From: Psychroserpens luteolus
GTDB taxonomy: Bacteria; Bacteroidota; Bacteroidia; Flavobacteriales; Flavobacteriaceae
Direction: 5' to 3'
Length of the DNA: 64,000 nt
NCBI RefSeq assembly: GCF_021032705.1
Contig: NZ_JAHVXI010000002.1
Span: 248,001-312,000 of the forward strand
The notes under the pieces were generated by a model. It was not told the DNA's origin. It worked only from the letters and a program-made list of their open reading frames with translations, and did not search any database. Numbering within the stretch: position 1 is the stretch's first letter; every line of letters starts with the position of its first letter. Below, piece after piece: positions 59,189-60,424 of the stretch. The position numbers were made by a program, and so were the translations under genes.

Positions 59189-59294
59189 AGCTTTTATAAG
59201 AGTTATTTAGGCATATTGTTAAAAACAATTGAAAAGTAATTCCTACCCTATCCTGTTAAAAAATGTTAAATTACTACTATGTAATGCAAAGTAC

Positions 59295-59321
59295 TGTAAC
59301 ATTTTTATAATTCTGTCGTCT
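59295..59321 (+). promoter_or_regulatory. ECF-type promoter TGTAAC-N16-CGTCT
   Basis: TGTAAC at 59295-59300, 16-base spacer, CGTCT at 59317-59321. This matches the general ECF sigma-factor layout (an AAC-type -35 and a CGTC-type -10) and not the vegetative TTG/TAnnTTTG pattern. Start of transcription would fall near 59327, 30 bases before the first micro-ORF. No ECF sigma or anti-sigma gene is in the window. Confidence 0.55.
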
Positions 59322-59356
59322 TTCTAGTATAACATCAATCATTAAAACCAATTATT

Positions 59357-59443
59357 ATGAGAACTTTAAACAACAATCAATTATCAAGTACTTCAACTGA
59401 AACTAAAATTTATACTTGGAATCAAAAAAGACGATATAGATAA
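59357..59443 (+). CDS. Micro-ORF 1 of tandem array (28 aa)
   Basis: 28 codons: MRTLNNNQLSSTST, then ETKIYTWNQKRRYR. Polar N-terminal half and basic, aromatic C-terminal end; no signal peptide or membrane helix. Nearly identical to micro-ORF 2: the first 47 bases are the same, and of eight differences in the last 13 codons four are synonymous and four conservative (K/R, I/M, T/N, Q/K), with no frameshift or early stop. That pattern supports translation. Follows the ECF-type promoter. Function unknown. Confidence 0.6.
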   Translation: MRTLNNNQLSSTSTETKIYTWNQKRRYR

Positions 59444-59487
59444 TTATATCTATTTCAAAATCATCAATCAAAAAAAAATCAATTATC

Positions 59488-59574
59488 ATGAGAACTTTAA
59501 ACAACAATCAATTATCAAGTACTTCAACTGAAACAAGAATGTACAATTGGAACAAAAAAAGACGCTATAGATAA
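59488..59574 (+). CDS. Micro-ORF 2 of tandem array (28 aa)
   Basis: 28 codons, the same MRTLNNNQLSSTST start, ending ETRMYNWNKKRRYR; the second copy of micro-ORF 1 at a distance of 131 bases. W21, R25, R26, Y27 and R28 are invariant. The bases before its ATG (ATTATC) and ATGAGAAC at the start are the same as at the exbD start (59849-59862), a possible trace of how the unit arose. Function unknown. Confidence 0.6.
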   Translation: MRTLNNNQLSSTSTETRMYNWNKKRRYR

Positions 59575-59615
59575 CTATAGGAATTAAAATTCATCAATCA
59601 AAACATCAATCTACC

Positions 59616-59684
59616 ATGAAAGCTTTAACAAAAATTATCAACACATCACATACAACAAATGACGACTTAGAAACGTTACGTTAA
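59616..59684 (+). CDS. Micro-ORF 3 of tandem array (22 aa)
   Basis: 22 codons, MKALTKIINTSHTT then NDDLETLR. It shares only the leader repeat and the M-[RK]-x-L start with copies 1 and 2, and its C-terminus is acidic before the final Arg. It may be a diverged copy or a separate small peptide. Less certain than the first two because no second copy is available for comparison. Confidence 0.4.
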   Translation: MKALTKIINTSHTTNDDLETLR

Positions 59685-59752
59685 TAGTGATAACAACAAC
59701 ATTATTCATCAATCAAAATGCATATTGAGTTTATTCTCAATATAATATCCGG

Positions 59753-59787
59753 AAAAACCAGCATACTTTTAGTATTCTGGTTTTTTT
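59753..59787 (+). terminator. Strong terminator closing the micro-ORF transcript
   Basis: AAACCAG-C-ATAC / GTAT-T-CTGGTTT with a TTTTA loop and one internal mismatch, followed by a T-run. A second 8-bp hairpin, ATATTGAG-TTTATT-CTCAATAT, lies just before it at 59722-59743. Together they end a transcript of about 460 bases and separate it from exbD. Confidence 0.8.
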
Positions 59788-59854
59788 GGTTTTAAGAAAA
59801 TGGTATCGTTTTTGAGGCTTGTGACGTATAACAATAATCTTAAAAACTATTATC

Positions 59855-60424
59855 ATGAGAACATCAAGACGACAATCTCCTCAAGTTAATGCAGGCTCAA
59901 TGGCTGACATTGCTTTTTTACTTCTTATCTTTTTCTTAGTTACTGCTGCTATACCAGAAAAGGACGAAGGTATCACTCGAAAACTTCCACCTCCTTGTCC
60001 GCCTAATACAATTTGCGATGACGGAACCATCAAACAACGCAATGTTTTAGAAGTTAAAATTAACTCTAAAAATGAGTTGTGGGTAGAAAATGAGATTATT
60101 GATATTGAAGAACTCAAGGACATTGCAATCGCTTTTCTTGACAACAATGGTGATAATACATGTAATTATTGTAATGGTTTAAAAGATAATAATTCATCTG
60201 ACAACCCAAGCAAAGCAGTAATATCCTTAAATAATGACAAGCTTACGTCCTACAAATTCTACATCCAAGTTCAGGACGAATTAACTAAAGCCTATTATGA
60301 ATTGCGAAATAATTATTCTGAAACCATTATCAAAAAACCATCTAATAAACTCACAAAAAAAGAATTAAAACAGGTCAAGGACGCCTATCCATTTATACTG
60401 TCTGAAGCAGAAATCAAGAATTAA
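59855..60424 (+). CDS. exbD: ExbD/TolR-type proton channel subunit
   Basis: 189 residues. One N-terminal membrane helix with the functional Asp in 'GSMADIAFLLLIFFLVT' (about D19), a proline-rich 'KLPPPCPPN' linker and a periplasmic domain with 'CNYCNGLKDNNSSDNPSKAV', as in other flavobacterial ExbD. ExbD pairs with ExbB to use the proton gradient for TonB-dependent uptake. No exbB, second exbD or tonB is in the window, so this copy stands alone. Its stop overlaps the convergent 3D-domain gene by 4 bases. Separated from the micro-ORFs by a terminator. Confidence 0.92.
   Translation: MRTSRRQSPQVNAGSMADIAFLLLIFFLVTAAIPEKDEGITRKLPPPCPPNTICDDGTIKQRNVLEVKINSKNELWVENEIIDIEELKDIAIAFLDNNGDNTCNYCNGLKDNNSSDNPSKAVISLNNDKLTSYKFYIQVQDELTKAYYELRNNYSETIIKKPSNKLTKKELKQVKDAYPFILSEAEIKN

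What the first reader, a model, noticed from the sequence alone, without database searches (positions are those of the whole stretch)
59290..59790. Tandem array of conserved micro-ORFs as a stand-alone transcript
Two near-identical 28-codon ORFs (59357-59443, 59488-59574) and a 22-codon ORF (59616-59684) each follow a CATCAATCA-type leader, between a promoter-like sequence and a strong terminator. Direct reading: the copies share 47 identical bases, then differ in eight codons, four silent and four conservative, without frame loss. Inference: the peptides are translated and under selection. Basic W-x3-RRYR ends hint at RNA, membrane or partner binding. Alternatives are an attenuator-like RNA or a stress-induced peptide family.
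Basis: partly seen in the sequence, partly recalled or inferred. Interest (0 to 1): 0.85.

Follow-up and report, generated by a model that had tools for sequence, protein, structure and literature searches.

The report
Stress-driven arrays of tiny bacterial proteins
A short stretch of a marine bacterium's genome holds a promoter and a row of genes for proteins of only 22 to 28 amino acids; related rows occur in many relatives and look like an overlooked output of a stress response, though what the tiny proteins do is still unknown.

Summary
The 28-codon ORFs (family P1) recur in 136 of 397 sampled Flavobacteriaceae; in order and phylum samples only this family matched. Of 201 distinct DNA copies in 169 loci, 200 are intact and one has an in-frame deletion. 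dN/dS is 0.22 overall, 0.08 at the C-terminus; five other frames give 0.47-2.07. The 22-codon ORF is another family, P2 (dN/dS 0.14); other genera have P3 (43-45 aa) there, never both. No conserved RNA pairing was found. The promoter is of ECF-sigma type: TGTAAC-N16-CGTC in 108 of 128 arrays, with an upstream 19-base dyad. An extended form marks a regulon in 23 of 23 Psychroserpens genomes; similar boxes precede an ECF sigma gene in 15 of 15 readable orthologues. The promoter also occurs in 65 genomes without P1. Of 39 exact sites examined, 33 of them in such genomes, 33 lead to micro-ORFs ending in W-x3-(K/R)-x-(Y/F); controls 0 of 39 and 2 of 1963. Best reading: stress-induced basic micro-proteins, partner unknown; translation inferred, not measured.

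The parts
59254..59269 (+). direct repeat TGTTAA-N4-TGTTAA (10-base period), possible activator site
   Evidence: a GTTAA pair 10 or 11 bases apart in 100 of 110 aligned arrays
59275..59293 (+). dyad TACTATGTAATGCAAAGTA, possible operator
   Evidence: consensus; the pattern TACTNTGTNATRCANAGTA occurs once each in 16 of 23 Psychroserpens genomes, 15 at the array and one at a contig end with TGTAAC behind it
59295..59321 (+). ECF-sigma-type promoter TGTAAC-N16-CGTCT
   Evidence: TGTAAC-N16-CGTC in 108 of 128 arrays, spacer 16 in all 108 although 14-18 was allowed
59333..59341 (+). first CATCAATCA leader element; the others are at 59462-59470, 59592-59600 and 59707-59715
59357..59443 (+). P1 copy 1, 28 codons plus stop
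59488..59574 (+). P1 copy 2, 28 codons plus stop
59616..59684 (+). P2, 22 codons plus stop, separate family
59753..59785 (+). terminator-like hairpin followed by T
   Evidence: inverted repeat, folds in the whole transcript, found in my terminator scan; not listed by the stock scan

Best explanation
A micro-protein operon that is one output of an ECF-sigma (probably cell-envelope) stress regulon in Flavobacteriaceae. Shown by sequence: a conserved ECF-type promoter with an upstream dyad and direct repeat stands before one short unit that carries one to four P1 genes (28 aa; net charge +5 and +6 here), then usually one P2 or P3 gene, then a terminator-like hairpin; the reading frames are under strong purifying selection. 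Inferred: an ECF sigma, probably the one whose own gene carries TGTAAC-N17-CGTC, switches the unit on together with ABC transporters, a DUF456 protein and other membrane genes; tandem copies raise the dose; the peptides stay in the cytoplasm (no signal sequence seen by eye). Guessed from charge and conservation alone: the basic-aromatic end W-x3-(K/R)-x-(Y/F) folds on an anionic partner, most likely RNA or the ribosome, second the inner face of the membrane, and so changes cell physiology during stress.
For: Coding: dN/dS 0.216 over 2940 pairs, C-terminus 0.083, five other frames 0.469-2.067; 200 of 201 DNA copies intact; P2 0.141, P3 0.260, class B 0.135, each against 0.82-1.74 in shifted frames; no conserved pairing. 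Promoter. Regulon: 108 sites in 23 of 23 genomes against 6 for the reversed pattern, my sum, with ABC transporter parts, DUF456, ankyrin and small membrane proteins behind those that I read. Autoregulated ECF sigma: 15 of 15 readable of 20. Single unit: no such promoter between copies in 58 multi-copy arrays. Copies beside signalling genes of three other kinds in 11 of 129 arrays, counted by eye. Same promoter before other basic micro-ORFs: 33 of 39 sites. Charge.
Against: No transcription, translation or induction was measured. 20 of 128 arrays lack the exact boxes; four of these have close variants by eye. The short box pattern alone is hardly above its control in the own genome (10 against 6). 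The sigma gene has a 17-base spacer, the arrays 16, so another ECF sigma may be the right one. Three of 39 promoter sites lead to 141-188 aa proteins with a signal-like start instead of micro-ORFs. AlphaFold2 gives low confidence: a helix at 17-25 for P1 (pLDDT 69), one long helix for P3 (pLDDT 75). Nothing tests the partner. The ending rule was set after I had seen the sequences.
Confidence: 0.6

Rival explanations
1. The peptides are exported: a leaderless bacteriocin-like or signalling peptide set.
For: Short cationic peptides in tandem; a few copies stand between a LytTR-type two-component system or a sigma-54 regulator and ABC transporter genes (L043, L045, L098, L134).
Against: At the main locus the neighbours are a helicase and an ExbD-like gene. 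22 of 23 genomes of the genus have P1 and the C-terminus has dN/dS 0.083, unlike the patchy, fast-changing bacteriocins (recalled). No signal or export motif seen by eye.
Confidence: 0.12
2. The peptides act on signalling: they bind a histidine kinase, anti-sigma factor or sigma factor and feed back on the stress response.
For: A 31-aa P1 variant is the first cistron before a kinase and regulator operon in the own genome; P1 lies beside signalling genes in 11 of 129 arrays, by eye.
Against: The other 118 arrays were not seen beside such genes, and those signalling genes belong to unrelated types.
Confidence: 0.12
3. The RNA is the active product (regulatory or sponge RNA) and the ORFs are incidental or only protect it.
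For: Short stand-alone unit with a hairpin end; repeated CATCAATCA elements; the transcript folds better than 99 of 100 shuffles (z -2.36); synonymous change is low in the first nine codons (pS 0.216).
Against: Codon-level selection in P1, P2, P3 and class B; no conserved pair in 24 aligned copies; no Rfam match in the window.
Confidence: 0.06
4. Leader peptides that control transcription or translation of downstream genes (attenuation or stalling).
For: In a minority of loci P1 is the first cistron before kinase, ABC transporter or other genes; the basic C-terminus resembles stalling motifs (recalled).
Against: At the main locus the unit ends in a terminator-like hairpin and its downstream neighbour differs between genera; 22 of 198 frames run one to five residues further; no run of a regulatory amino acid.
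Confidence: 0.05

Closest known systems
SM6 (CGT-box, ECF-type) promoters of Flavobacterium psychrophilum (PMC9723704; passages read)
   Same: CGT in the -10 region; SM6 targets include an ECF sigma/anti-sigma pair, an ABC ATPase, a rhodanese and a small RNA (Rfp11), and our regulon has an ECF sigma, ABC parts and a rhodanese.
   Different: The paper reports no micro-protein array in the passages that I saw; the two Flavobacterium-like genomes of genus g146 lack the array promoter. I could not compare the full motif or Rfp11 itself.
FbpA, FbpB, FbpC of Bacillus subtilis (PMC7430163; passages read)
   Same: Small basic stress-regulated proteins thought to help an RNA.
   Different: Fur-regulated, FbpB 48 aa, not in tandem arrays (recalled); the review says that RNA binding has not been shown even there. 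No sequence comparison was made.
Sigma-E-dependent small RNAs of enterobacteria (MicA, RybB; recalled, no call)
   Same: Short transcripts as an arm of an ECF envelope-stress response.
   Different: There the RNA pairs with target mRNAs; here codons, not pairing, are conserved.
Phenol-soluble modulins and multi-peptide leaderless bacteriocins (recalled, no call)
   Same: Tandem genes for short peptides without leader.
   Different: Those are amphipathic, exported and membrane-active; P1 is polar with a basic end, and the main locus has no exporter beside it.

Membership tests
ECF-sigma regulon member | -35 TGTAAC and -10 CGTC boxes at a fixed spacing | tested here: met
   108 of 128 arrays, spacer 16 in all 108
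ECF-sigma regulon member | the same boxes before other genes and before the sigma gene itself | tested here: met
   108 sites against 6 control in 23 genomes; 15 of 15 readable sigma orthologues, with spacer 17
ECF-sigma regulon member | transcription lost without the sigma factor | not testable with these tools
   needs a mutant
Conserved small-protein (sORF) family | protein-level purifying selection | tested here: met
Conserved small-protein (sORF) family | measured translation | not testable with these tools
   needs ribosome profiling or mass spectrometry
Known protein family (Pfam, NCBIfam, PHROGs) | match to a curated profile | tested here: not met
   window peptides: none in Pfam or NCBIfam; P1 profile members in PHROGs best 0.26; P3 best 0.018 and 0.12; class B none and 0.015; all single-member chance-level matches. 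P2 was scanned only as the window sequence
Structured RNA family | Rfam match or conserved base pairs | tested here: not met
   whole transcript z -2.36
Attenuator leader peptide | regulated gene downstream in the same transcript, reached by read-through | tested here: not met
   terminator-like hairpin before the next gene at this locus; in a minority of other loci P1 does precede genes
Leaderless bacteriocin | export or immunity genes beside the peptide genes | tested here: not met
   main locus: helicase and ExbD-like gene; a few other loci have ABC genes
Small basic RNA-chaperone-like proteins (FbpABC type) | RNA binding or cooperation with an sRNA | not testable with these tools
   only net charge (+5, +6) speaks for it

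The most novel reading that the evidence does not exclude
Nearly half of the sampled Flavobacteriaceae carry an undescribed stress-response module: a near-invariant dyad plus ECF promoter whose payload is a swappable tandem array of 22-45 aa cationic micro-proteins. The payload changes between genera (P1, P2, P3, class B and others) while the promoter and the end W-x3-(K/R)-x-(Y/F) persist, so the end would be the recognition code for one conserved partner; the same peptides are also recruited by two-component and sigma-54 systems.
Probability: 0.45. Interest if true: 0.87.

Novelty: new variant of a known kind. Interest (0 to 1): 0.77.

Why it matters
Genes this short are commonly passed over by annotation, so a conserved arm of the stress response in a large family of mostly marine bacteria may be missing from its gene lists. 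The promoter finds arrays even where the peptides have changed beyond sequence recognition, which gives a handle for finding micro-proteins. Knock-out and tagging in a culturable relative could test it directly.

Tried and rejected
Rejected: structured RNA; phage origin (PHROGs; viral contigs: 70 and 64 stretches matched a pattern, none was a relative); sigma-70 promoter; attenuator at this locus.

Inconclusive: homology of P2 with the start of P3 (hhalign P-value 0.0014 over 11 columns, probability 18%), P1 with P3 (0.1), P1 with P2 (0.024 over six columns), P1 with class B (0.017), P3 with class B (0.029). AlphaFold2 models of P1 and P3 were too uncertain for a fold search, and none was run. 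PDB sequence searches gave chance-level matches only: P1 1.5, P3 1.5, class B 0.15. GTTAA repeats: the kinase locus has an 11-base period, the arrays mostly 10, and the paper on RprY of Porphyromonas gingivalis (PMC3646045, term search only) yielded no binding motif; the name RprXY-like for the kinase and regulator is recalled, not tested. Literature: peptide strings in 0 papers; topic searches showed nothing on this array in titles or starts of abstracts. The library holds no preprints and few subscription papers.

One array was dropped for short upstream sequence. The 40 stretches were chosen by me from exact promoter matches in a cut-off listing, in genomes with no P1 or weak P1; two were too short and were dropped. 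In one search the ending rule was set after seeing the sequences. Pairs in the dN/dS sums are not independent. In one search the tally 29 of 57 is at E up to 10; 25 of 57 have E below 0.001, the rest look like chance.

Full report
OBSERVATION. Two ORFs of 28 codons share 47 leading bases and 79 of 87 bases in all; eight codons differ, four silently. A 22-codon ORF follows. Four CATCAATCA elements punctuate the unit and a hairpin with a T run closes it. The flanking genes are a helicase on the opposite strand and an ExbD-like gene downstream.

IS IT REAL? A protein search of 57 relatives found P1 at E below 0.001 in 25, among them 22 of 23 genomes of the same genus; those matches cover 27 or 28 of the 28 residues without an internal stop. 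A profile found P1 in 136 of 397 genomes of the bacterial family, 94 of 237 genera. In samples of the order (296) and the phylum (395) the 6 and 4 genomes that matched all belong to that family. Named relatives include Psychroserpens (by its near-identical hits and the search by genus, the likely genus of the window), Winogradskyella, Lacinutrix, Seonamhaeicola, Algibacter, Mangrovimonas, Flavivirga and Aquimarina.

CODING. From 129 arrays I took 198 reading frames. 176 are exactly 28 aa; 22 run on by one, three or five residues. W21, N22 and R25 are the same in all 198, while synonymous codons vary (N22: AAC 101, AAT 97). dN/dS summed over 2940 pairs is 0.216: 0.135 for residues 1-9, 0.388 for 10-20, 0.083 for 21-28; the five other frames give 0.469 to 2.067. 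A DNA-profile search that does not ask for an open frame found 201 distinct copies in 169 loci, 200 intact and one (L136) with an in-frame deletion that keeps both ends (loci counted). RNAalifold finds no conserved pair in 24 aligned copies. Against this, the whole transcript folds better than 99 of 100 shuffles (z -2.36), in part through its end hairpin. Low synonymous change in the first nine codons (pS 0.216 against 0.484 at the end) suggests an extra demand near the start, probably for translation initiation (inference).

THE REST OF THE UNIT. The 22-codon ORF (P2) is a family of its own: 61 distinct sequences, dN/dS 0.141 against 1.11 and 0.82 in the other frames. Where P2 is missing, a 43-45 aa ORF (P3), often ending W-K-G-x-K-R-Y-A-H, stands in its place in many arrays. 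Of 129 arrays 61 have P2, 42 P3, none both, 26 neither; of 113 arrays with the ECF-type promoter 60 have P2, 41 P3, 12 neither. P3 has dN/dS 0.260 against 0.925 and 1.007, on 63 pairs. P3 matched in 61 of 397 genomes of the family, a few of these at chance level. P2 and the start of P3 may be related (weak). Arrays hold one P1 copy (71), two (49), three (7) or four (2). No promoter of this type lies between copies in 58 multi-copy arrays.

PROMOTER AND REGULON. TGTAAC-N16-CGTC precedes the first ORF in 108 of 128 arrays; 14-18 was allowed and the spacer was 16 each time. In 110 aligned arrays a dyad, consensus TAcTaTGTtaTgCAtAGTA, stands just upstream, and in 100 of them a GTTAA pair 10 or 11 bases apart. 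The dyad pattern occurs once in each of 16 of 23 Psychroserpens genomes: 15 at the array, one at a contig end where TGTAAC follows. The bare boxes are hardly above control in the own genome (10 against 6); the extended pattern with TATAA is: 108 sites in 23 of 23 genomes, the arrays included, against 6 for the reversed pattern, by my sum. Behind the sites that I read are MacB-like permeases and ABC ATPases (by eye), DUF456 and ankyrin proteins (Pfam), an 84-aa membrane protein without a family and an aspartyl-protease-like protein (by eye). An ECF sigma gene (Pfam), found in 20 of 23 genomes, has TGTAAC-N17-CGTC before it in 15 of 15 readable orthologues; 5 of 20 could not be read by my script. 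In Flavobacterium psychrophilum a CGT-box motif, SM6, has been ascribed to an ECF sigma, with partly similar targets (PMC9723704, passages).

OTHER CONTEXTS. In the own genome a 31-aa P1 variant lies before a histidine kinase and an OmpR-type regulator (L033). Elsewhere P1 lies between a LytTR-type system and ABC genes (L043, L045), between a sigma-54 regulator and MacAB-like genes with a promoter that looks like sigma-54 (by eye; L098, L134), or inside a TetR-led group (L037). Together 11 of 129 arrays lie beside signalling genes (by eye). Recruitment by unrelated regulators argues for a common effector role (inference).

A WIDER CLASS. The pattern AGTACTGTAAC-N16-CGTCT, one mismatch allowed, occurs in 182 of 382 genomes of the family; the reversed control hits 14 by my count. 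117 of the 133 P1 genomes in that set have it, and 65 genomes have it without P1. I fetched 40 stretches at exact matches in genomes with no P1 or weak P1. Of 39 usable sites 33 are followed by a micro-ORF of 20-55 aa that ends in W-x3-(K/R)-x-(Y/F), 26 by two or more; controls gave 0 of 39 on the reverse strand and 2 of 1963 in random window stretches. By genome, that is 28 of 33 sites without P1 and 5 of 6 with weak P1 (my split). The six misses are two sites before a 188-aa protein with a signal-like start (L307), one before a 141-aa one (L339), a four-fold array of a 29-aa peptide without W (L315), and two with micro-ORFs just outside my rule (L323, L342). The rule was set after I had seen the sequences. 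The commonest class (B, 36-37 aa, TESK...SKR..W...RNY.R) has dN/dS 0.135 against 1.74 and 1.12 on 389 pairs. The family libraries and the PDB gave nothing above chance for P1, P3 and class B, nor for the window's own P2. Whether the classes share descent is open.

MECHANISM. Shown: protein-level selection, fixed ECF-type promoter, array structure. Inferred: induction by an ECF sigma under envelope stress, high dose through tandem copies, cytoplasmic location. Guess: binding of an anionic partner, RNA or ribosome before membrane, through the conserved basic-aromatic end. AlphaFold2 sees at most a short helix at residues 17-25 of P1, at low confidence, in keeping with a peptide that folds on its partner.

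VERDICT. The finding belongs to a wide, apparently undescribed set of ECF-driven micro-protein arrays in Flavobacteriaceae. Small stress proteins as such are a known kind; arrays with exchangeable payloads behind one conserved promoter did not turn up in the literature that I could search.

Noticed in passing
L033:2010-2102 (own genome, C11:673009): A 31-aa P1 variant lies about 110 bases before a histidine kinase and OmpR-type regulator, with CTAGGTTAA repeats and a TAGATTTG box upstream.
   Followed up: partly
L035:4213-5703: A unit of promoter plus three P1 ORFs is repeated three times in tandem in one relative, near genes of HerA-like ATPase type (by eye).
   Followed up: no
L307 (two sites), L339: The array promoter stands before 188-aa and 141-aa proteins with signal-like starts instead of micro-ORFs.
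   Followed up: no
L098:3800-4400, L134:3800-4420: P1 arrays with a sigma-54-like promoter (by eye) between an NtrC-type regulator and MacAB-like genes.
   Followed up: partly
L311, L312, L324, L332, L336, L337, L344: A further micro-ORF type with FGW or similar in the middle (37-43 aa) often opens class B arrays.
   Followed up: no
window 59707-59786: A fourth CATCAATCA element is followed by ATG and an open frame that runs into the terminator hairpin; perhaps a decayed copy.
   Followed up: no
window 59842-59867: The start region of the ExbD-like gene resembles the start region of the P1 copies (85% over 26 bases).
   Followed up: no
G021 (same genus): The one of 23 genomes of the genus without a P1 match; it keeps the ECF sigma gene with its boxes and one regulon site.
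   Followed up: no
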